Below, in pieces: positions 28,934 to 41,448 of a stretch of 53,024 bases of DNA. The stretch is from Microscilla marina ATCC 23134 (GTDB lineage: Bacteria > Bacteroidota > Bacteroidia > Cytophagales > Microscillaceae), in assembly GCF_000169175.1 (NCBI RefSeq), contig NZ_AAWS01000061.1, positions 1-53,024 on the forward strand, in the 5' to 3' direction. The translations under genes and the position numbers were made by a program. Below the pieces are notes generated by a model, which saw only the letters and a program-made list of their open reading frames with translations, ran no database searches and was not told the DNA's origin. Within the stretch, counting starts at the first letter, position 1; every line of letters starts with the position of its first letter.

Positions 28934-29263
28934 GCTACGATTAGCCTTTAGCTTTTAGCCTTTGTTTGGCTGTTTGTAGGTTAGCTTTTTTTTGAGCTAT
29001 GCAGAGTCTTTAGCCCTTAGCTTGAGCTACGTGGAGTTTTTTGTTGAGCTATGCTTAGCGACGATTAGTAACTATCATATTTGCGAAAGCAAGAAAAGGC
29101 TAACAGCTAACCTCCGCGAAGAACAGAAAAGCTAAAGGCTCAACTCAGCGAAGAACAAAAAGGCTAAAGGCTCCCCCTGACGAAGAACAGAAAAGCTAAA
29201 GGCTCCCCCTGACGAAGAACAAAAAAGCTAAAGACTCCCTCGAAAGCAAAAAAAATAGCTAAT
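28934..29263 (+). repeat. Palindromic repeat array (R2), copy 1
   Basis: Fills most of the gap between HK2 and HK3. The first half is T-rich with repeated TAGCCTTTAGC and GAGCTATG words. The centre is a 68-bp core (29058-29125) beginning GCGACGATTAGTAACTATCA. The second half is A-rich with units of 32 bases containing GCGAAGAACA and GCTAAAGGCT, the sense-opposite of the first half, so an RNA would fold into a long hairpin. The core is found in three other gaps (33464, 37841 and 39890 regions). No reading frame; not CRISPR-like. Confidence 0.88.
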
Positions 29264-29387: not shown

Positions 29388-31574
29388 ATGGGTAAAAAAA
29401 TCATATTTCTTTTATGGATTTTCATTTTATGTGCCGGGCATCTGCTGGCGCAGAAAAATTGTGACAAAATCAATGAACTTAACACAAAACTATTGGTATT
29501 GCCCGAAGACTCTAGCAAAGTAAATGTATTGAATACCCTTGCCCATGAACATTTAGCCATTGATCAGGACATTGCTCTGGAGTATGCCAACACTGCTTAC
29601 CAACTAGCCCAAAAAATTAATTATGCCATTGGGCAAGGCAAGGCATTGATTAATATAGGCAAACAACATTACCGCAAGGAAAATGATTTTAAGTCTACCC
29701 TTGAGTATTACCAAAAAGGCCTTAAGCTTTTTCAGGATGCTAACTCGCTTAAGCACATTGCCGAGGCTTATGAAGCTATAGGTAAACATTACCACGACTT
29801 GTACTACCTCAACAAAGAGAAATACTATGAGGAAGCATTAAAAAACTATGAGCAGGCAATGTTAGCTTATCAGAAGTGGAAGCCCCGCCGCCAAATGGAT
29901 GACAATGAAAAAGAGTACCTGGCAAAATTGTATCAAAGGCTTGCCGAGCTGTATACAGTGACCGAAAATGATGCTGAAGCATTGCGGTACTCGAAAAAAT
30001 CTATTCGGATAAAAAAACAACTGGAGAAATACCAAAACAATTTTGAGTTTCAATTTATCAATCAGCGCATTGCCCGACTCAACAATACCCTCAAAAAAGA
30101 ACAGATGTTTAAAATAGGGTTGTTTGTGGCCATTGGGCTATTGTTGGTGTTTGCTTTGTTGTTGCTTATTAATAGTGGGCAGAAACAAAAGGTAAATAAA
30201 AGGCTGAAGCAACAAACCCGTGATTTGGCCAATCAGAACCGACAGATTGAAGAACAGAATAAAAAAATCATTCGCCAAAATAAAGAGATAGAGTTGAGTA
30301 ATTTTGAGCTGACCGAAAGCAGTAAAAAAGAAAAAGAACAAAAGGAGGCCATAGCCAAAGTAAATGAAGAACTGACTCGTAAGAATGAGGAGGTGTTGGC
30401 ACAACGAAAATTGGTGCTGGAGTCGAACAAAGAGCTGAATAAAAAAAATCAGGAAATTCAGTTTCAGTATGAACAGTTAGAAAGAGCCAATAAAAAGTTT
30501 TTGCACGCCAACGAAATGCTCAACACAATACTGGATGAGATAGAAAAGAAAAACACTGACCTGGAAGCGCAGCGAGATGATTTGAGCAACGCCAAAAATG
30601 AATTGGAAAAACTACAGAAATCCAAGGCGAGGCTTACGGCTATGGTAGCACACGACTTGCGCAACCCTTTGAATGTAGTAGTAGGCTACAGCAACCCCGA
30701 TAGCAATATTGTGATTGACGGAGATACCAAAAAACACATTTATAAGGCAAGCCAACGTATCAACTCGCTGATAGACGATATGCTGGATGTACAGAAATAC
30801 GCCAACTCGCAAATACAAATCGAAAAATCGCAGCTTATCCTATGTGATACTGCTCAGGAGGCAATCAATGAGTTGAGTATTTTTGCCCAGCAAAAAGGGG
30901 TGCGAATACAAAATAAGATAGGGGCACAGTGGCAAAGTACTTATGATGGCAAGTATATAAGGCGGGTGTTTGAAAACCTTCTCACCAATGCCATCAAATT
31001 TACCCCTAATGGGGGAACCATCACTTTTGAAGCTAAAGAAACCCCCGAAAATGAACAACTCATTGTAAGTGTAACCGACACGGGAGAAGGGATACCAGCA
31101 CATAAATTTAAAGAAATCTTTGAGCCTTTTAATCAACTCGATGCCCGCAACTTTGCCAATACCAGCTCTACTGGGTTGGGGCTTACTTTTTGTAAAATGG
31201 CAATAGAAGCTCACCAAAGCCACATCAAAGTACGCTCTAAAGTGGGCGAAGGCACGAGTTTTTTCTTTGAGTTGCCCAAAATAGAAGTAGAAGCCACAGC
31301 AGAGTCGTTGACTAACCAAAATGCTACTGACGCTGACAAAACGTTGAGCTTTTCGGAAGACGATAAAGCATTTTTAGCTCCTTATATTCAACAGTTGAAA
31401 AAGTACGAGTTGTATGAAATAAGTGACCTAGAGAAGGTATTGGAGCAAATACTGGTGGTTGATCGCCCCGATTTGAAACAATGGAAAACGCGCATTAGGG
31501 CTGCTATAGACAACTACAACGAAGCCGAGTTTGGCCGTTTAATAGCCGCTGCAGAAGGCAATAATCTGGCTTAA
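29388..31574 (+). CDS. Sensor histidine kinase with TPR-rich N-terminal region (HK3)
   Basis: A 728-residue kinase. A signal peptide (IIFLLWIFILCAGHLLAQ) precedes a helical, TPR-like region at about 30-235, where ALINIGKQHYRKENDFKSTL, HIAEAYEAIGKHYHDLYYLN and LAKLYQRLAELYTVTENDAE show the TPR alternation. The membrane span is at about 240-264 (IGLFVAIGLLLVFALLLLI), then a very long coiled coil. His422 is in VAHDLRNPLNVV; ATPase boxes FENLLTNAIKFTP, VTDTGEGIPAH and STGLGLTFCK are intact. The tail of about 70 residues matches HK1 and HK2 (ELYEISDLEKVLEQ, QWKTRIRAAIDNYNE). No receiver domain. Just downstream (31 bases) is the basic mini-protein gene, then the receiver-cyclase, a probable output. 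Confidence 0.92.
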   Translation: MGKKIIFLLWIFILCAGHLLAQKNCDKINELNTKLLVLPEDSSKVNVLNTLAHEHLAIDQDIALEYANTAYQLAQKINYAIGQGKALINIGKQHYRKENDFKSTLEYYQKGLKLFQDANSLKHIAEAYEAIGKHYHDLYYLNKEKYYEEALKNYEQAMLAYQKWKPRRQMDDNEKEYLAKLYQRLAELYTVTENDAEALRYSKKSIRIKKQLEKYQNNFEFQFINQRIARLNNTLKKEQMFKIGLFVAIGLLLVFALLLLINSGQKQKVNKRLKQQTRDLANQNRQIEEQNKKIIRQNKEIELSNFELTESSKKEKEQKEAIAKVNEELTRKNEEVLAQRKLVLESNKELNKKNQEIQFQYEQLERANKKFLHANEMLNTILDEIEKKNTDLEAQRDDLSNAKNELEKLQKSKARLTAMVAHDLRNPLNVVVGYSNPDSNIVIDGDTKKHIYKASQRINSLIDDMLDVQKYANSQIQIEKSQLILCDTAQEAINELSIFAQQKGVRIQNKIGAQWQSTYDGKYIRRVFENLLTNAIKFTPNGGTITFEAKETPENEQLIVSVTDTGEGIPAHKFKEIFEPFNQLDARNFANTSSTGLGLTFCKMAIEAHQSHIKVRSKVGEGTSFFFELPKIEVEATAESLTNQNATDADKTLSFSEDDKAFLAPYIQQLKKYELYEISDLEKVLEQILVVDRPDLKQWKTRIRAAIDNYNEAEFGRLIAAAEGNNLA

Positions 31575-31605: not shown

Positions 31606-32016
31606 ATGTACTCCATGAAAAAATACTTCATACTTCCTGCATTTATTTTAGCTTTGGTGGGTTTTACCCAATCATCGTCGTATGCCCAGCTAGAGCCTCC
31701 TCCTCACAAAGTAAAAAAGAAAACCGAGAAGTCACGCTTAGACAAAATGGGCACAGTGAGTCGTCATACCCGCAAAAATAAAAAAGGGATGACCAAAGCC
31801 GAAGTACGTCGACGTAGTATAATAGAGGGGCAAGCACGCCGCCGTTATAAAATATCTCAAGGCAGAACCGGAGGGTTGACCAAGGCTTCGCGCCGAATGA
31901 AGCGCCGCAAGCAGGTAAAGCGTAAAAAAGGCATGACCAAAGCAGCCATGCGTATGAGCAACTCGGAAAGAAAAAGAAAAAGAACTTTACGACGAAAGCT
32001 GAAGCGAATTAATTAA
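31606..32016 (+). CDS. Secreted Arg/Lys-rich mini-protein
   Basis: A small protein of 136 residues, or 133 if it begins at the second ATG (31615), which gives the better signal peptide KKYFILPAFILALVGFTQSSSYAQ. The mature part is extremely basic: lysine and arginine dominate throughout. It contains three variants of a motif around GxTKAxxR (GMTKAEVRRR, GLTKASRRMKRR, GMTKAAMRMS). No hydrophobic segment after the signal and no cysteines. I do not recognise a family. It follows HK3 by 31 bases and has its own terminator, so it may be co-transcribed with HK3; codon use looks like its neighbours. Possible jobs are binding anionic polymers or nucleic acid at the surface, or serving as a ligand for one of the sensors; these are guesses. 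Confidence 0.75.
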   Translation: MYSMKKYFILPAFILALVGFTQSSSYAQLEPPPHKVKKKTEKSRLDKMGTVSRHTRKNKKGMTKAEVRRRSIIEGQARRRYKISQGRTGGLTKASRRMKRRKQVKRKKGMTKAAMRMSNSERKRKRTLRRKLKRIN

Positions 32017-32313: not shown

Positions 32314-33402
32314 ATGAAAGCAACCATATTAATTGTGGATGATGAGGTGACCAACCTTAAAATACTCAGAGAGTATCTGACCACTGCCGACCAGGAGTTT
32401 AGAATTTTGCAGGCAACCAATGGTAAGCAGGCATTTGATATAGCCCAAAAAGCTGATCCTGACTTAGTAATTATGGACTGGATGATGCCGGTAATGTCGG
32501 GCATAGATGCGCTCAAAAATATTAAAACTACTGAAAGCACCCAAAACATTCCGGTGATTATGGCAACCGCCAAAACCAGTGCACAAGACTTAAAAGAAGC
32601 ACTGGAAGCGGGAGCTATGGACTATGTAAGAAAACCGATAGATAAAACTGAGTTGTTGGCAAGGGTACGTTCGGCGATTCAGCTAAGCCATGCTTACAAA
32701 CAAAGCGAAGAGCTATTGCTCAATATATTACCTAAAGAAATAGCTGAAGAGCTCAAAGCTAAAGGCACGGTTGCCCCTAAACCTTATGAACTTGCCACGG
32801 TGTTGTTTACTGATTTTAAAGGGTTTACGAGTGTAGCCGCCCGCATGAAACCCATAGATTTGCTCAAAGAACTAAATGCTTGCTTTGACGCCTTTGACGA
32901 GATTATAGAGAAGCACGAAATGGAGCGCATCAAAACCATTGGCGATGCTTATATGTGTGTAGGTGGGGTGCCTAATGCCAATACTACCAACCCGGTAAAT
33001 GCAGTGCTTGCTGCGCTGGAAATGCAACGTTTTATGAAACAAAAACGGGAAGAAAAAGCCTCCCAAGGTGAAAATTACTGGCAATGCCGCCTGGGGATCA
33101 ACAGTGGAGAAGTGATAGCTGGAGTAATTGGCAGAAAAAAGTTTGCTTATGATATATGGGGTGACACGGTAAACTCGGCAAGTCGTATGGAGAGCAATGG
33201 CGAAGCAGGCAAAGTAAATATATCGGGGAGCACCCATGCGCTGGTAAAAGACTTGTTTGAGTGTGAGCATCGGGGTAAGATAAATGCCAAAGGTAAGGGG
33301 GAAGTAGATATGTATTTTGTGTTGGGTATCAAGCCTGAGTACTCGATCAATAACGAGGGGGTAGAACCTAATGAGTTGTTTTATTCGAGTGTTGGTAGTT
33401 AG
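32314..33402 (+). CDS. Response regulator with class III adenylate cyclase output domain
   Basis: A 362-residue receiver-cyclase. The receiver covers residues 1-120: acidic pair D9-D10, phosphoacceptor D55 in LVIMDWMMP, T85 and K107 in MATAKTS and YVRKPID. A signalling helix LLLNILPKEIAEELKAKG leads into a class III nucleotidyl cyclase. Metal aspartates are D167 (LFTDFKGFT) and D211 (KTIGDAYM). The substrate-selecting residues are K207 and D280 (AYDIWGDTVN), the adenylate-type pair rather than the Glu/Cys of guanylate cyclases; transition-state N287 and R291 are present. Predicted to make cAMP in the cytoplasm when phosphorylated. The three histidine kinases just upstream lack receivers and are the natural partners (inference). 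A repeat array begins immediately at its stop codon. Confidence 0.93.
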   Translation: MKATILIVDDEVTNLKILREYLTTADQEFRILQATNGKQAFDIAQKADPDLVIMDWMMPVMSGIDALKNIKTTESTQNIPVIMATAKTSAQDLKEALEAGAMDYVRKPIDKTELLARVRSAIQLSHAYKQSEELLLNILPKEIAEELKAKGTVAPKPYELATVLFTDFKGFTSVAARMKPIDLLKELNACFDAFDEIIEKHEMERIKTIGDAYMCVGGVPNANTTNPVNAVLAALEMQRFMKQKREEKASQGENYWQCRLGINSGEVIAGVIGRKKFAYDIWGDTVNSASRMESNGEAGKVNISGSTHALVKDLFECEHRGKINAKGKGEVDMYFVLGIKPEYSINNEGVEPNELFYSSVGS

Positions 33403-33733
33403 CCTTTGTTTGAGCTATGTGGAGCTTTTAGCCTTTTTTTGAGCTATGCTTAGCCTTTGTTTGGCGACGATTAGTAACTATCATATTTGCGAAAGCAAGA
33501 AAAGGCTAACAGCTAACCTCCGCGAAGAACAAAAAAGCTAAAGGCTACTCCTCTGCGAAGAATAGAAAGGCTAACGGCTAACCTCCGCGAAGAATAGAAA
33601 GGCTAAAGGCTACTCCTCTGCGAAGAATAGAAAGGCTAAAGGCTAACTCCACGAAATCAAGAAAAAGCTAAAGGCTAACGGCTACCCCAGCGAAGAACAA
33701 AAAGGCTAAAAGCTCACGAACAACGAAAAAGAA
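33403..33733 (+). repeat. Palindromic repeat array (R2), copy 2
   Basis: Fills the whole gap between the receiver-cyclase stop and the M61 peptidase start (10 bases away). Same layout as the array at 28934: T-rich TAGCCTTTG words, then the 68-bp core at 33464-33531, then five to six A-rich units of 31-39 bases with GCGAAGAA and GGCTAAAGGCTA. Same orientation as copy 1. The core matches copy 1 at nearly every base. Confidence 0.88.
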
Positions 33734-35467: not shown

Positions 35468-35839
35468 CCGCAACGAATGAGGTAAGGGTATGTTTAAGTT
35501 CTAATAGAAGGTTTGTTTGTGGGTAGGTTATGGTAAGCTTTTGGGTATTGATGCTATGAGTAGGGTTAACTCATTCATCATAGGTTAGTTATGCTCACTG
35601 TTTAGTTGCATTTAATGTTATCTTAGTACTAAATTAGCAATGCTTGAGCATTACTCACAAACAATCATCATTAAAAAAATATTTTTTATATGTTATTCTA
35701 ACAAAAAAAAATCATAGCTTCATTATTCATTTGATATTCCCCTATCTTTGACAAATGGCACATTTTGCCACACAGTCAATAACTGCCGTCTAAGACGAGC
35801 ACAATTAAAAATTAAACAAAGAAGTATCTCTATAAACTT
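35468..35839 (+). other. Intergenic gap upstream of the first asnB-like gene (no gene seen)
   Basis: AT-rich; contains a TAnnTTTG element at 35743-35750 and runs of A. No good hairpin for a terminator of the peptidase gene was seen. A reading frame starting at 35748 overlaps asnB1 in another frame and lacks coding features. Confidence 0.45.
35743..35750 (+). promoter_or_regulatory. Candidate -7 element of the asnB-like pair
   Basis: TATCTTTG matches TAnnTTTG, 89 bases before the ATG of asnB1. No standard -33, although TTTG occurs 12 bases upstream. Tentative. Confidence 0.4.
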
Positions 35840-37702
35840 ATGTCTGGTATTGCTGGCTTTTTTTCACCCAACACATTTTTTTCAGAAACCGACCTTCAGC
35901 AAATGGCTGCCCCCCTTCAAAAAAGAGGCGCTCAAAGCAGTCATCATTATTATGAGGAAGGATTGGGGCTGATTCATCAAAGACTTAGTTTTGTAGACAA
36001 GTCGCCCGAAGCCCAACAACCCATGCAATCGCACAATGGGCGTTTTGTAATGGTGATGGATGGGCAGGCATACAACCACCACGAAATAGCCAGAGGGTTT
36101 TCAAACGAACAGTTCAACACTACCTCGGATGCTGAAATTATTCTGGAAAATTTTGTAGAGAAAAACATCCGTTCTATCTACCAAATCAACGGCATGTTTG
36201 CCGCAGCCACTTATGATCGAGAAGAAAAAGTGTTGTCGTTGTTTAGAGACCGGGTAGGTATCAAACCTTTGTTCTATTACTGGGACGAAGAAAACTTTGC
36301 GTTTGCGTCTGAACTGCATGCCTTGCTAAAGCTGCCCCAAATAAAGCGTAGGTTGAACAAAAAAGCGGTGGCGGAGTTTCTGCATTTGGGCTATATACCT
36401 GCGCCCCATACACTTTACAAACATATTTTTAAGCTGGAACCAGGAAGTTGGCTCAGGATACAAGACAAAAACCTGATTGTAAAAAAATATTGGACTGTAG
36501 CCGACAAAATCTACGAGCCTAAGTTGCGTAGCCGGTTGCCCTACCTTAATACAGAAGCCAACGCGCTCAAGCATTTTGAAAAAATACTGTTGGAATCGTT
36601 AGAACAACGTACCCCCACCACTGCTACGTATGGAACCTGGCTAGACCACCATCCCGAATCGTGCCTGCTCACAGCATTGCTGGCAAAGCAAAAAGGCAAT
36701 GACTTTCCTACACTTTCGGTGGCTTACCCAAAAACCAAAAATAATGAACCTAGGAACGCCGTAAAAGTAGCCGAACATCTGAAAACCAACCACGAAGAGA
36801 TTTCGGTGTCCTTTGACGACATTCGTAGTTTTGTAAACTCACTGCCCGAAAAGTTTCAAGAACCCGTAGCTGATTTCAATCAATTTACCTATACATTGCT
36901 GGGGCAAAAGAGCAAAGAAGTAGCCGAGGTAATAATGACAGCACAAGGAGCCGATGCTTTGTTTTTTGGCAATGGTACCCACCATTGGGCGCAAAGGCTG
37001 GATAGTAGCTGGATAAAAACTATCAGAAAGCCTTATGCTTATTTGCTCAAAATAAATAAGTCGACCAAAGCCCGCAAAGCCAGTGCCTTGCTCAACTACT
37101 CACACAAAGACGACCTGCTAAGCCACGTATATTCGCAAGAGCACCTGCTCTTCTCAAAAAGAGAGTTGCCCTCGTTGTTGTCGTCTTATACCCCCATATC
37201 GCCTTACCCTGTGATAGACGATGCATCGCTTACACCGCTCGAACAACAAGCCCTGTTTGATATTAACTATGACCTGCCAGGCAACTCATTGTTTTTGCTC
37301 GACCAGGCACTCATGTCAAATACGGTAGAAGCCCGCACCCCTCTGCTCGACTTTCGCATCATAGAGTTTGCCATCAACCTAAACCCCCAACTCAAATACC
37401 GGGGAGCCCAACCCAAATATTTGGTAAAACAATTGCTGCAAAAGTTTGTGCCCGAAAAACTGTGGGCAAAGCAAAAGCTAGAACAAACCCCTATGTTGGC
37501 ACAATGGATGGAGAAGGAATTAGATGATTACCTCAACGAAAAGATAGTAAAAGAGTGTGGTGTGGTAGAGTTTGAAGTAGTACAACAGCTCAAAGAACAG
37601 TTTAAAAAAGGGCACACATACTTGTATAATCGCTTATGGGCACTTACAATATTGCACGTATTTTTGAGTAACGCTATTGCACAAGGAATGGAGGTGGAGT
37701 AG
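35840..37702 (+). CDS. Asparagine-synthetase-like pseudoenzyme (both active sites lost)
   Basis: A 620-residue protein with the full AsnB layout but altered catalytic sites. The N-terminal glutaminase should start MCGI; here it starts MSGIAGFF, so the nucleophile Cys is Ser. The conserved Asn of NGEIYN is Asp74 in DGQAYN. The Arg of RLSFVD and Asp of SDAEII remain. In the synthetase half, the PP-loop SGGxDSS is replaced by LDHHPES at residues 268-274, and the GDGADE loop by AQGADA. Fold landmarks such as RTPLLDFRIIEFA remain, so the protein is probably folded. The open frame and normal codon use argue against a decaying pseudogene. It lies 240 bases before the intact paralogue at 37943, with repeat array copy 3 between. 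A regulatory or scaffolding partner of the intact enzyme is my best guess. Confidence 0.88.
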   Translation: MSGIAGFFSPNTFFSETDLQQMAAPLQKRGAQSSHHYYEEGLGLIHQRLSFVDKSPEAQQPMQSHNGRFVMVMDGQAYNHHEIARGFSNEQFNTTSDAEIILENFVEKNIRSIYQINGMFAAATYDREEKVLSLFRDRVGIKPLFYYWDEENFAFASELHALLKLPQIKRRLNKKAVAEFLHLGYIPAPHTLYKHIFKLEPGSWLRIQDKNLIVKKYWTVADKIYEPKLRSRLPYLNTEANALKHFEKILLESLEQRTPTTATYGTWLDHHPESCLLTALLAKQKGNDFPTLSVAYPKTKNNEPRNAVKVAEHLKTNHEEISVSFDDIRSFVNSLPEKFQEPVADFNQFTYTLLGQKSKEVAEVIMTAQGADALFFGNGTHHWAQRLDSSWIKTIRKPYAYLLKINKSTKARKASALLNYSHKDDLLSHVYSQEHLLFSKRELPSLLSSYTPISPYPVIDDASLTPLEQQALFDINYDLPGNSLFLLDQALMSNTVEARTPLLDFRIIEFAINLNPQLKYRGAQPKYLVKQLLQKFVPEKLWAKQKLEQTPMLAQWMEKELDDYLNEKIVKECGVVEFEVVQQLKEQFKKGHTYLYNRLWALTILHVFLSNAIAQGMEVE

Positions 37703-37917
37703 CTTTTCTGTTCTTCGCTGGGAGTTAGCCTTTAGCTTTTCTGTTCTTCGCTGGGGGTAGCTTTTAGCCTTTCTGTCCTTCGCGGAGTTGAGTCTTTAGT
37801 CTTTCTGTTCTTCGCAGGAGGTAGCCGTTAGCTTTTTCTTGCTTTCGCAAATATGATAGTTACTAATCGTCGCCAAACAAAGGCTAACAGCTAAAGGCTA
37901 ATCGTAACCCAAAAAAA
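37703..37917 (-). repeat. Palindromic repeat array (R2), copy 3 (inverted)
   Basis: Starts right at the stop codon of asnB1 and ends 25 bases before asnB2. On this strand the units read as the reverse complement of those at 28934/33403 (TTCTTCGC and TAGCCTTT words first, then the core at about 37841-37873, then AAAGGCTA). It is inverted relative to copies 1 and 2. The core stretch GCTTTCGCAAATATGATAGT is retained. Confidence 0.85.
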
Positions 37918-37942
37918 ACTACTAACAAAACAACTTAACTGT

Positions 37943-39790
37943 ATGTGCGGCATCACAGGTTTTTACACGCTTTCGCGGAAATGGTCGCAAGACCAACTAA
38001 AGAGCATGACGCAGGCTCTGAAACATCGGGGACCTGACGCAGACGGTTTTTTCTTTGGTCAACGCTGTGGTTTAGGGCATCGTAGGCTCAAAATCATCGA
38101 CTTGTCTGATGCAGCCAACCAACCCATGCACAGCCACGATCAGCGTTACACGATGGTGTTTAATGGAGAGGTATACAACTTTCAGGAAATTGCCAGAAAA
38201 TACCAGCTTTCGCTGAAAACCAAGACCGATTCGGAGGTGATTTTAGAGCTGTTTGCTCAAAAAGGCGAAAAGTTTGTGCACGAGCTCAACGGCATGTTTG
38301 CTTTGGCCATTTACGACCACAAAACACATTCGCTGTGGATATACCGCGACCGAATGGGAATCAAACCTTTGTTTTATTATTGGGATGGTGAAAATTTTGC
38401 TTTTGCCTCTGAAACCAAAGCCTTGCTCGCGTTGGGCATCGACCGAACTATTAACAAAGAAGCCTTGCAAGATTACCTGTTTATGGAGTATGTGCCTGAC
38501 CATCAGTCTATTTTTAAGCACATTCATAAACTCGAAAAAGGGCATTATATGAAAATAAGCCCTAAAAAACTGGAGAAAACACGCTACTACAACTTGCTTG
38601 ACAAATGGAACCCTTCTCCCGCCCACGACTTAAACTATTATACCGAGGCATTCGACGAGCAACTCACCCGCTCTATAGCCTACCGCTCTATAAGCGATGT
38701 ACCCATGGGAGCTTTCCTGAGTGGAGGCACTGACTCGTCGCTCATCAGTGCCAAGTTTCAACAACTCTCACCACAAAGCATCAAAACCTTCACCATAGGC
38801 TTCGACGTGGCAAGCTTCGACGAATCGGCTTACGCCCAAAAGGTAGCCAAACACTTGCAAACCCAGCACACCCTAGAGCGGGCATCTGCCAAAGAGTCTA
38901 TAGGCATTGTAGAAGAACTGGTGAGCCACTACGATGAGCCTTTTGCGGCAAATTCGTGCATCCCCAGCCTGTTGGTTTGCCAAAAAGCCCGCAACGAGGT
39001 AACCGTAGCCCTCAGCGGCGATGGTGCCGATGAGTTGTTCATGGGCTATGGTTATTACTATTGGCATGAGCGTATCCAGAAAATATCGAAGTATGGAGGC
39101 TACCCGGCCCGCAAGCTTACCAGCAAGGTGTTGAGCTGGATGGATCAACGCAAACAGCGGGCAGCACGGGTTTTTAATTACAGCGATTTTGAGCGAATAT
39201 GGCTACACGTATGGTCGCAAGAACAATACATGTTTTCGGAACAAGAGGTTTCGTGGCTGCTCAATACCCCCTACCAACACCAAAGCACTTGGAAAGACTG
39301 GCAAGAGATCAATCAGTTGGACATTCACCCTTTCGAAAAAATATCCTTGTTTGACCTCATGCACTATTTGCCCTATAATTTACTTTACAAAATGGACATT
39401 GCTTCCATGGCATCGGCACTGGAGGTAAGGGTTCCTTATTTAGACCATCATTTGGTAGAGTTTGCCATGAATTTGCCCTTGAATATGAAGGTACAGGCAG
39501 GTGAACAAAAGTTTTTGATGAAAAAAACGCTGGAAAAGTATTTGCCCAAAGAGCTGATTTATCGTCAAAAATGGGGGTTTCCGGCTCCAGTGGGCGATTG
39601 GCTCAAAACAGACCTGGCTTATTTGATTGACAAGTATTTAAATCCCACTTTGCTTAAGCAACAAGGCTTGTTTGATCCTCATGTAGTGCAGCGCTTTGTA
39701 AAACTCTTTAAAAAAGGCAAAAATTATCATTATAAAAGAATCTGGGCATTGATCGTGTTTCAGATGTGGTATGCGTATTATATAGACTAG
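37943..39790 (+). CDS. asnB: Asparagine synthetase (glutamine-hydrolysing)
   Basis: A 615-residue glutamine-dependent asparagine-synthetase-family enzyme with all catalytic elements. Cys1 is in MCGITGFYT, with RLKIIDLSD, FNGEVYNF and KTDSEVILE for glutaminase. The ATP PP-loop is LSGGTDSSL (Ser-Gly-Gly at 260-262), and LSGDGADELFMGY, RVPYLDHHLVEFA and KWGFPAPVGDW complete the synthetase half. Length is close to bacterial AsnB proteins of the exopolysaccharide-associated branch. The neighbours are a degenerate paralogue upstream and a glycosyltransferase and methyltransferase downstream, as in surface-polysaccharide loci where such enzymes amidate sugar acids. So asparagine synthesis or glycan amidation are both possible; the sequence does not decide. 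Repeat arrays lie on both sides. Confidence 0.92.
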   Translation: MCGITGFYTLSRKWSQDQLKSMTQALKHRGPDADGFFFGQRCGLGHRRLKIIDLSDAANQPMHSHDQRYTMVFNGEVYNFQEIARKYQLSLKTKTDSEVILELFAQKGEKFVHELNGMFALAIYDHKTHSLWIYRDRMGIKPLFYYWDGENFAFASETKALLALGIDRTINKEALQDYLFMEYVPDHQSIFKHIHKLEKGHYMKISPKKLEKTRYYNLLDKWNPSPAHDLNYYTEAFDEQLTRSIAYRSISDVPMGAFLSGGTDSSLISAKFQQLSPQSIKTFTIGFDVASFDESAYAQKVAKHLQTQHTLERASAKESIGIVEELVSHYDEPFAANSCIPSLLVCQKARNEVTVALSGDGADELFMGYGYYYWHERIQKISKYGGYPARKLTSKVLSWMDQRKQRAARVFNYSDFERIWLHVWSQEQYMFSEQEVSWLLNTPYQHQSTWKDWQEINQLDIHPFEKISLFDLMHYLPYNLLYKMDIASMASALEVRVPYLDHHLVEFAMNLPLNMKVQAGEQKFLMKKTLEKYLPKELIYRQKWGFPAPVGDWLKTDLAYLIDKYLNPTLLKQQGLFDPHVVQRFVKLFKKGKNYHYKRIWALIVFQMWYAYYID

Positions 39791-40200
39791 TTTTTGTTCT
39801 TTGCGGGGGGTGGCTTTTAGCTTTTTTGTTCTTCGCTGGAGTAGCCGTTAGCCTTTCTGTTCTTCGCTGAGTTGAGCCTTTAGCTTTTTTGTTCTTCGCG
39901 GAGGTTAGCTGTTAGCCTTTTCGTGCTTTCGCAAATATGATAGTTACTAATCGTCGCTCAACAAAAAGCTAACTTACAAACATCCAAACAAAGGCTAAAA
40001 GCTAACAGCTAAAGGCTAATCGTCGCTCAACAAAAAACTAACTTACAAACAGCCAAACAAAGGCTAAAAGCTAATCATAGCTCAACAAAAAACTAACTTA
40101 CAAACAGCCAAACAAAGGCTAAAAGCTAATCATAGCTCAAAAAAAGGCTAAAAGCTAAGGGCTCTACATAGTTCAAAAAAAGCTAAAGGCTCCACGTAAC
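39791..40200 (-). repeat. Palindromic repeat array (R2), copy 4 (inverted), with 55-bp tandem duplication
   Basis: Longest of the four arrays, filling the gap between asnB and the glycosyltransferase. Same orientation as copy 3. The 68-bp core lies at 39890-39957. Its second half contains two exactly identical 55-bp tandem units at 40025-40079 and 40080-40134, plus a related one before them, which indicates recent expansion. The words AAAGGCTA and AACTTACAAACA recur through it. Confidence 0.88.
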
Positions 40201-40230
40201 AAAAGCCAACTAAAAACAACCGACTCATAT

Positions 40231-41448
40231 ATGAAAATACTCTACCTCTCTTATGATGGAATGACCGACCCGCTTGGGCAATCGCAAGTGTTGCCTTACT
40301 TGCTGGAACTGAGCAAAATGGGGCATCAGATTACCTTACTAAGCACCGAAAAAGAAGCCAACTTTGCTTTGAGGCACCAAACCATCCAAAACTTGCTTAC
40401 TGAGCACCAAGCAAATCACCCTGAAGCTGCTATAGACTGGCAGTATATCACTTATACTAAAAAACCACCCGTGCTTTCCACCTTAAAAGACATCATGCAA
40501 CTGCGTAAAAAAGCCAGACAATTGCATCAACAAAAACAGTTTGATATTATCCATTGTCGAAGCTACGTAACTTCATTGATAGGGCTGGGCATGAAGAAGA
40601 AATATGGGACAAAGTTTGTATTCGACATGCGCGGTTTTTGGGCAGACGAACGGGTAGACGGGGGCTTGTGGAACTTGGGCAATCCTTTGTTTCGTGGGGT
40701 GTACAATTATTTTAAGAAAAAAGAAAAGCAGTTTTTAACAGCAGCCGATTATACCATTAGCCTGACCGAAAACGCCAAGCAAGAGATTCAGAACTGGCCT
40801 GGGTTTAGGCAAACCAAAATTGAGGTAATTCCGTGCTGTGTCGACACCCAATTGTTTGACTACAATGCCTTGCCTTCTCCTACCATGGCTGACCCATTGA
40901 AGCCCATTACTATTTCTTACCTGGGATCTATTGGCACTTGGTATATGCTAGAAGAAATGCTGGCTTTTTACCAGCGTTTGTTAAAGGCAGCCCCTGCTGC
41001 CCGGTTTATGTTTATCACCACCGAACCCGCCGAAGCAATTTACCAACAAGCCGAAAAAATGGAGTTACCCGCCCATCAAATAAGTGTACAAAAAGCCGAA
41101 CGAAAGCAAGTACCAGGGCTGCTTGCCCAAAGTGACGTCTCTATATTTTTTATCAAACCCTATTATTCTAAAAAAGCTTCATCGGCAACCAAAATGGGCG
41201 AAATTTTGGCAATGGGTATTCCTATTATTGCCAATGCCAATGTAGGCGATCATGATTTCTTATTTGAAAAATACTCTTGTGGTGTTTTGGTCGATGGATT
41301 TGACGAGGCTTTGCTCGATAAGGCAGTTGCGCAAATAAAAGAGATGCAGCGCATTGCCCCACAAGATTTAAGAAATGTGGCCATAGAATATTATAGTTTG
41401 AAAAAGGGAGTAAATTTGTATGCTAAAGTATATGAGCAAGTGAAATAA
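40231..41448 (+). CDS. Glycosyltransferase, family 4-like
   Basis: A 405-residue GT-B fold glycosyltransferase resembling GT4. The N-terminal MKILYLSYDGMTDPLGQSQV is a common start for polysaccharide GT4 proteins, then an acceptor-binding Rossmann half with IIHCRSYVTS. The C-terminal half shows the donor-side blocks: TISYLGSIGTWYMLEEML, then KAERKQVPGLLAQSDVSIFFIKP, SSATKMGEILAMGIPIIANANVGD and the final helix. The E-x7-E acid pair of GT4 is reduced (KMGEILAMGIP, one Glu). The donor sugar cannot be called. It follows the asnB gene across the repeat array and is 11 bases before a methyltransferase gene, probably one transcript. Likely a cytoplasmic-side enzyme in surface-glycan assembly. Confidence 0.88.
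   Translation: MKILYLSYDGMTDPLGQSQVLPYLLELSKMGHQITLLSTEKEANFALRHQTIQNLLTEHQANHPEAAIDWQYITYTKKPPVLSTLKDIMQLRKKARQLHQQKQFDIIHCRSYVTSLIGLGMKKKYGTKFVFDMRGFWADERVDGGLWNLGNPLFRGVYNYFKKKEKQFLTAADYTISLTENAKQEIQNWPGFRQTKIEVIPCCVDTQLFDYNALPSPTMADPLKPITISYLGSIGTWYMLEEMLAFYQRLLKAAPAARFMFITTEPAEAIYQQAEKMELPAHQISVQKAERKQVPGLLAQSDVSIFFIKPYYSKKASSATKMGEILAMGIPIIANANVGDHDFLFEKYSCGVLVDGFDEALLDKAVAQIKEMQRIAPQDLRNVAIEYYSLKKGVNLYAKVYEQVK

What the first reader, a model, noticed from the sequence alone, without database searches (positions are those of the whole stretch)
35840..37702. Asparagine-synthetase-like pseudoenzyme next to an intact paralogue
The first copy has lost the catalytic Cys (Ser), the Asn of the glutamine pocket (Asp), the ATP PP-loop and the GDGADE loop, while landmarks of the fold and an intact reading frame remain. 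It is not a random decay product. A dedicated regulatory partner, sensor or new chemistry in a pair with the intact enzyme would be novel.
Basis: seen in the sequence. Interest (0 to 1): 0.7.

Follow-up and report, generated by a model that had tools for sequence, protein, structure and literature searches.

The report
Conserved dead asparagine-synthetase-like pseudoenzyme gene
A marine bacterium keeps, beside a seemingly working asparagine-synthetase-type enzyme, a full-length relative in which both active sites have been rewritten yet which evolution still protects, so it probably does a non-catalytic job such as steering a working enzyme.

Summary
Window 35840-37702 (+) encodes an uninterrupted 620-aa AsnB-type protein with both active sites altered: Cys2>Ser, Asn74>Asp, Glu76>Gln in the glutaminase half; SGGxD>DHHPE and GDGxDE>AQGADA in the synthetase half. 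It is not a decaying pseudogene: the second Microscilla genome carries a 97% identical intact copy, and dN/dS between them is 0.053, in the range of neighbouring genes. The model (pLDDT 87, pTM 0.90) keeps the two-domain AsnB fold. One point changes: the genes are not a recent tandem duplicate. The dead protein nests among the family's intact AsnB on a branch of 1.62 changes per site; the intact neighbour groups with AsnB of another family; a common clade is rejected (p-AU 3e-8). So the resident AsnB lost its catalytic residues, Microscilla holds an intact homologue of other ancestry beside it, and the dead protein was then preserved. A prozyme-like partner of the neighbour is my best guess; no result shows contact. 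Two of 15 family genomes carry it; nine carry an intact AsnB of its clade, and in the eight of these read with flanks no second AsnB was seen.

The parts
35743..35750 (+). possible Bacteroidota-type -7 element TATCTTTG, starting 97 nt before the start codon
   Evidence: regex match; no -33 TTG found at the spacing searched, so weak; consensus recalled, not from a call
35840..37702 (+). AsnB-type pseudoenzyme, 620 aa, both active sites altered
35840..36490 (+). N-terminal Ntn glutaminase-like domain (about aa 1-217): C2S, N74D, E76Q; 39 of 49 conserved columns kept; aa 125-186 as similar to the intact family proteins as those are to each other
   Evidence: Pfam GATase_7 aa 46-163
36644..36664 (+). 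former PP-loop: DHHPESC (aa 269-275) in place of SGGxDSS
36938..36958 (+). former SGDGxDE loop: TAQGADA (aa 367-373)
37703..37942 (+). 240-bp spacer with a dispersed repeat of about 32-bp period; co-transcription uncertain
37943..39790 (+). intact AsnB-type amidotransferase, 615 aa, named motifs kept; groups with four AsnB rows of family f15
40231..41448 (+). GT4-type glycosyltransferase, same strand downstream
   Evidence: homologue near AsnB in L090
41460..42452 (+). class I methyltransferase, same strand downstream
   Evidence: homologues near AsnB in L090 and L047

Best explanation
Shown by sequence: 35840-37702 encodes a full-length AsnB-type pseudoenzyme. It descends from the family's ordinary AsnB, went through a burst of change that rewrote both active sites, and has since been held by purifying selection. 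Inferred: catalysis passed to an intact AsnB of other ancestry, now encoded next door (37943-39790). The resident protein was kept because it still binds something through its conserved scaffold, most likely as a non-catalytic, prozyme-like subunit that assembles with the neighbour's product and tunes or stabilises it. Bacterial AS-B is a dimer, which gives a plausible surface for a mixed dimer. The pathway would be amidation of a surface glycan or of aspartate, since glycosyltransferase and methyltransferase genes follow on the same strand. The partner step is a guess; the pseudoenzyme step is solid.
For: Change at 11 of 15 named positions, while 37 of 37 intact rows keep C, R, N, G, E, D and SGG..D. 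dN/dS 0.053 over 620 codons, dS 0.295; the 11 genes compared, this one included, give 0.020-0.145. Two-domain fold: pLDDT 86.9, pTM 0.90; Foldseek 7ylz_A E 6.4e-28 (TM 0.75 by query), 1ct9_D E 4.5e-25. Nested in the clade of nine family AsnB at 100/99 on a branch of 1.62, while the two Microscilla copies differ by only about 0.03, as do the two neighbours. Common clade with the neighbour rejected, p-AU 2.9e-8. Blocks aa 125-155, 156-186 and 497-527 keep family-level identity (ratios 1.01, 1.01, 0.92) while 249-279 and 342-372 fall to 0.33 and 0.31. Human ASNS E364A and E364Q are inactive (passages of PMC6748925); by motif this position is Gln here. Dead paralogues that activate a live partner are documented (abstracts of PMC5201418 and PMC3663545 in the listing).
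Against: No contact, co-expression or co-evolution evidence. Adjacency is seen in only two genomes of one genus, where the whole region is collinear. The 240-bp repeat-filled spacer argues against a tight operon. Different ancestry means that the two proteins did not inherit a shared homodimer as recent duplicates would. The C-domain kept only 34 of 69 conserved columns, so change is broad, not confined to the active site; the active-site excess is modest (p = 0.017). The structure alignment contains intact AsnB rows, which pull the model toward that fold.
Confidence: 0.42

Rival explanations
1. The pseudoenzyme works on its own or with another partner: a ligand sensor, scaffold or binding protein that kept the AsnB fold and has nothing to do with the neighbour's product.
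For: Different ancestry of the two genes; repeat-filled spacer; three further AsnB-like genes that keep Cys and SGGxD (L003, L004, L005) exist in the genome and could equally be partners.
Against: Nothing direct against it; adjacency in both genomes mildly favours the neighbour.
Confidence: 0.33
2. New chemistry: the rewritten pockets (DHHPESC, Ser2, Asp74, Gln76) form a different active site in the same fold.
For: The substitutions are the same in both genomes and the gene is under selection; Ser can be the nucleophile of other Ntn hydrolases (recalled).
Against: Loss of the pocket Asn and Glu and of the PP-loop leaves no catalytic set that I can recognise; with only two 97% identical sequences no new conserved motif can be told from background.
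Confidence: 0.17
3. A pseudogene in slow decay after displacement by another AsnB.
For: Very long branch (1.62 changes per site) and loss of catalytic residues.
Against: Intact frames in both genomes, dN/dS 0.053, dN about equal to that of the intact neighbour (0.0155 and 0.0151), good fold model.
Confidence: 0.04
4. An ordinary, active asparagine synthetase, as automatic annotation may call it.
For: It passes the NCBIfam TIGR01536 cut-off narrowly (275.2 against 267.1 bits).
Against: The Cys, the PP-loop and the acidic residues of both pockets are changed.
Confidence: 0.02

Closest known systems
Class B asparagine synthetase (AsnB/ASNS; PDB 1ct9, 6gq3)
   Same: two-domain fold over the whole length, Pfam GATase_7 plus Asn_synthase, descent from a clade of intact AsnB
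   Different: nucleophile, glutamine pocket and PP-loop replaced
Beta-lactam synthetase / carbapenam synthetase (1jgt, 1q15)
   Same: AsnB fold; no working glutaminase half (recalled)
   Different: these keep an ATP-using half (recalled; ATP and AMP/PPi complexes are among the titles); here it is lost too
TsnB9 hydroxyamidotransferase (7ylz)
   Same: best structural match
   Different: keeps MCG start and SGG loop (its alignment to the neighbour); an enzyme of natural-product synthesis (recalled and listing)
Trypanosomatid prozymes (dead paralogues of AdoMetDC and DHS)
   Same: catalytically dead homologue kept beside a living one; possible heteromer
   Different: unrelated folds (recalled); there activation is measured (abstracts), here it is not; here the two genes are not sister paralogues

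Membership tests
AsnB fold family | N-terminal Ntn glutaminase domain plus C-terminal synthetase domain over full length | tested here: met
Functional glutamine-dependent asparagine synthetase | N-terminal Cys nucleophile with Asn/Glu pocket | tested here: not met
   C2S, N74D, E76Q
Functional glutamine-dependent asparagine synthetase | SGGxD PP-loop and the SGE/DGxDE loop | tested here: not met
   DHHPE; TAQGADA
Functional glutamine-dependent asparagine synthetase | enzyme activity | not testable with these tools
   needs an assay
XrtA/PEP-CTERM amidotransferase TIGR03108 | score above curated cut-off 816.9 | tested here: not met
   311.4 bits; neighbour 511.0
Beta-lactam-synthetase type | glutaminase dead but ATP half kept (definition recalled) | tested here: not met
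   ATP half altered as well
Pseudoenzyme | lacks catalytic residues conserved in active relatives (definition: passages of PMC10211241) | tested here: met
   activity itself not assayed
Pseudoenzyme kept in use | maintained by selection (my own added test) | tested here: met
   dN/dS 0.053, one genome pair
Prozyme-like activator | binds and changes the activity of a live homologue | not testable with these tools
   no interaction data

The most novel reading that the evidence does not exclude
A resident AsnB was relieved of catalysis by an AsnB of other ancestry and was converted into that newcomer's dedicated non-catalytic subunit: a mixed, prozyme-like class-II amidotransferase assembled from two homologues that did not arise by duplication from each other within the lineage.
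Probability: 0.3. Interest if true: 0.72.

Novelty: new variant of a known kind. Interest (0 to 1): 0.5.

Why it matters
Dead paralogues that regulate living enzymes are known, best from eukaryotes and from duplication (recalled, apart from the listings). A double-dead AsnB under strong constraint next to an intact homologue of other descent is a clean, testable case of how a displaced enzyme is re-used. It also warns that a profile-based pipeline may name it an active asparagine synthase (TIGR01536 cut-off passed). My searches for print on pseudoenzymes of this family gave nothing on point: three returned no paper and of 1,512 loose matches I saw the listing of 15; the library lacks most subscription papers.

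Tried and rejected
First AlphaFold job with a four-row alignment gave pLDDT 32.9 and was discarded; the second, with 33 rows, worked. Shared synteny with the AsnB loci of 11 other family genomes: little found. A homologue of the 32314 cyclase lies about 5 kb from AsnB in G008 (L043) and a methyltransferase homologue near AsnB in G013 (L047); the remaining fetched stretches, G007 apart, share only AsnB with the window genes used as queries. A second dead AsnB: in G013 both AsnB-like genes keep SGG and GxGGDE; the N-terminus of the second was not examined. Tandem duplication: rejected; the pair was named by the finding before the tree was seen. A wider origin of the dead pair with the f15 group: also disfavoured, p-AU 0.006, but that group was named after seeing the tree. 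Long branches are in play, and the test shares the model's pull between them. Pseudogene: rejected. Close relatives of the dead protein in genome contigs: 8 stretches matched a pattern and 2 encode a relative, one the second Microscilla genome, the other a 65-residue match. The first is the same contig as G007 C6 by length (117,312), so it is not an independent record. VIA-align could not be run. Four paper searches returned nothing.

Rows dropped: the tree left out L006 and L030 of the 50 proteins held; L031 and L032 (fragments) were never added. The tree left out 14 of 58 (L003-L006, L020, L023, L025-L030, L033, L034). The 37 reference rows leave out those 14 and also L019, L022 and L024. 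For the structure alignment I used 29 of the 80 viral-contig loci kept by a capped scan. In the order search, 18 of 35 matches outside the family were read and three more of them (L077, L080, L082).

Full report
What is there. The window lies in a genome of 9.77 Mb in 135 contigs. A second genome of the same genus (G007) is titled 'Uncultured Microscilla sp.'; Microscilla is in Cytophagales. ORF 35840-37702 (+) is 620 aa without interruption. Pfam finds GATase_7, GATase_6 and Asn_synthase over its length. It is 34% identical to the 615-aa product of 37943-39790 over 628 columns.

Active sites. PMC6748925 (passages seen) names Cys1, Arg48, Asn74, Gly75, Glu76 and Asp96 for glutamine, the SGGxD loop for pyrophosphate, and Ser362, Gly363, Glu364, Asp367 and Glu368 in the synthetase pocket of human ASNS. 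I mapped these 15 positions by motif. In the first protein 11 of 15 differ from the neighbour: C>S, N>D, E>Q, SGG-D>DHH-E, S>T, G>A, D>Q, E>A; R, G, D and the Asp367 equivalent stay. The S>T change is uninformative, since intact rows vary there too. All 37 intact relatives in the alignment keep C, R, N, G, E, D and SGG..D. In human ASNS the E364A and E364Q variants are inactive; the equivalent residue here is Gln.

Not decay. G007 has the same gene, 97% identical and intact, next to the same intact neighbour. Nei-Gojobori dN/dS is 0.053 (dS 0.295, dN 0.0155); the neighbour gives 0.038 with dN 0.0151. Across 11 genes of the region, these two included, dN/dS runs from 0.020 to 0.145, and the dead gene sits in the constrained half. 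This is one genome pair, so the estimate is for a single interval.

Fold. With 33 rows (two window proteins, their two Microscilla counterparts and 29 viral-contig relatives) AlphaFold2 gave pLDDT 86.9 and pTM 0.90. Foldseek's best matches are TsnB9 (7ylz_A, E 6.4e-28, TM 0.75 by query, rmsd 6.4), E. coli AsnB (1ct9_D, E 4.5e-25), human ASNS and beta-lactam synthetase. The rows include intact AsnB, which pulls the model toward that fold. Identity to the nine intact family proteins, relative to their identity among themselves, drops to 0.33 and 0.31 in the blocks with the two synthetase loops (aa 249-279, 342-372) and to 0.49 and 0.55 in aa 32-93, but is 1.01 in aa 125-186 and 0.92 in aa 497-527. 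Against a tidy picture, other blocks also fall (aa 435-465: 0.50; 528-558: 0.49), and only 34 of 69 conserved C-domain columns are kept. The excess at named active-site columns is 9 of 13 against 36 of 105 (p = 0.017), real but modest.

Where the two genes come from. Of 15 family genomes, two (G000, G007) have the dead gene; nine have an intact AsnB of the same clade; G001 and G014 have an intact one that groups elsewhere; G013 has a distant one; G011 (79% complete) has none of this type (tree, motifs). In that tree (44 rows) the dead pair sits inside the clade of the nine at 100/99 on a branch of 1.62. The intact neighbour groups at 100/99 with four rows of family f15, though another f15 row (L080) groups elsewhere. 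Long-branch attraction would be expected to pull the dead pair outward, not into a short-branched clade. Holding dead and intact genes together costs 74.7 log units, p-AU 2.9e-8. The two Microscilla dead copies differ by about 0.03 per site, as do the two intact ones: a burst, then restraint. Whether the intact neighbour came by transfer or is an old paralogue lost elsewhere is not settled. In 390 genomes sampled from the order, 46 have a match at E <= 1e-100; after the two Microscilla (1412.5 and 1373.8 bits) the best is 548.7 bits. The 18 loci newly read there have intact motifs; the other 17 matches outside the family had no locus in that call, and one of those carries a stop (G062).

Surroundings. 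Downstream on the same strand lie a GT4 glycosyltransferase and a methyltransferase. A member of the order (G178, L090) has AsnB, an acyltransferase and homologues of this glycosyltransferase and methyltransferase in a row, which hints at surface-glycan work for this gene type. The other AsnB loci of the family share little with the window: one cyclase homologue in G008, one methyltransferase homologue in G013. The spacer 37703-37942 holds a dispersed repeat; 28 matches in the genome, itself included, with 40 of 95 candidates scored, so co-transcription is uncertain. A -7-like box starts 97 nt before the dead gene, weak evidence.

Mechanism. The solid part is a selection-maintained protein of AsnB descent whose catalytic residues are gone. 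For its present job I prefer a non-catalytic subunit acting on a living AsnB-type enzyme, most probably the neighbour. E. coli AS-B is a head-to-tail dimer and human ASNS a head-to-head dimer (passages of PMC11615228), so the fold has surfaces for pairing. Documented dead activators exist in other enzyme families (abstracts; review passages). No data here show contact. A stand-alone sensor or scaffold is nearly as likely, and new chemistry is possible but unsupported.

Verdict. Observation confirmed; interpretation partly supported; the evolutionary route (not tandem duplication) is the new point. Novelty: a new variant of a known kind, because pseudoenzymes are known, while one in this family with both sites lost and strong constraint was not found in print by my searches, which cover an open-access library only, and only the 15 listed papers.

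Noticed in passing
window 37703-37942, 39791-40230, 29049-29227, 33450-33703: Dispersed intergenic repeat with about 32-bp period; 28 matches in the genome at E <= 0.001, the query itself included (40 of 95 candidates scored), several in this contig.
   Followed up: partly
L006 (G000:C11:45737-47110): Another AsnB-like protein of the same genome, 563 aa, without the MCG start but with SGGLDSS; G007 has a match of similar score.
   Followed up: no
window 32314-33402: Response regulator fused to a guanylate/adenylate cyclase domain, near a histidine kinase at 29388-31574.
   Followed up: no
window 31606-32016: Small, basic protein of 136 aa with a signal-peptide-like start (by eye) and no Pfam match.
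   Followed up: no
L090 5592-6811 (G178): Homologue of the window's glycosyltransferase is split over two overlapping frames near an AsnB gene; frameshift or assembly error.
   Followed up: no
L032 (G004:C190:3715-4868) and G062:C10:40284-42122: Two AsnB-like matches with a stop inside, the first on a 5.7-kb contig.
   Followed up: no
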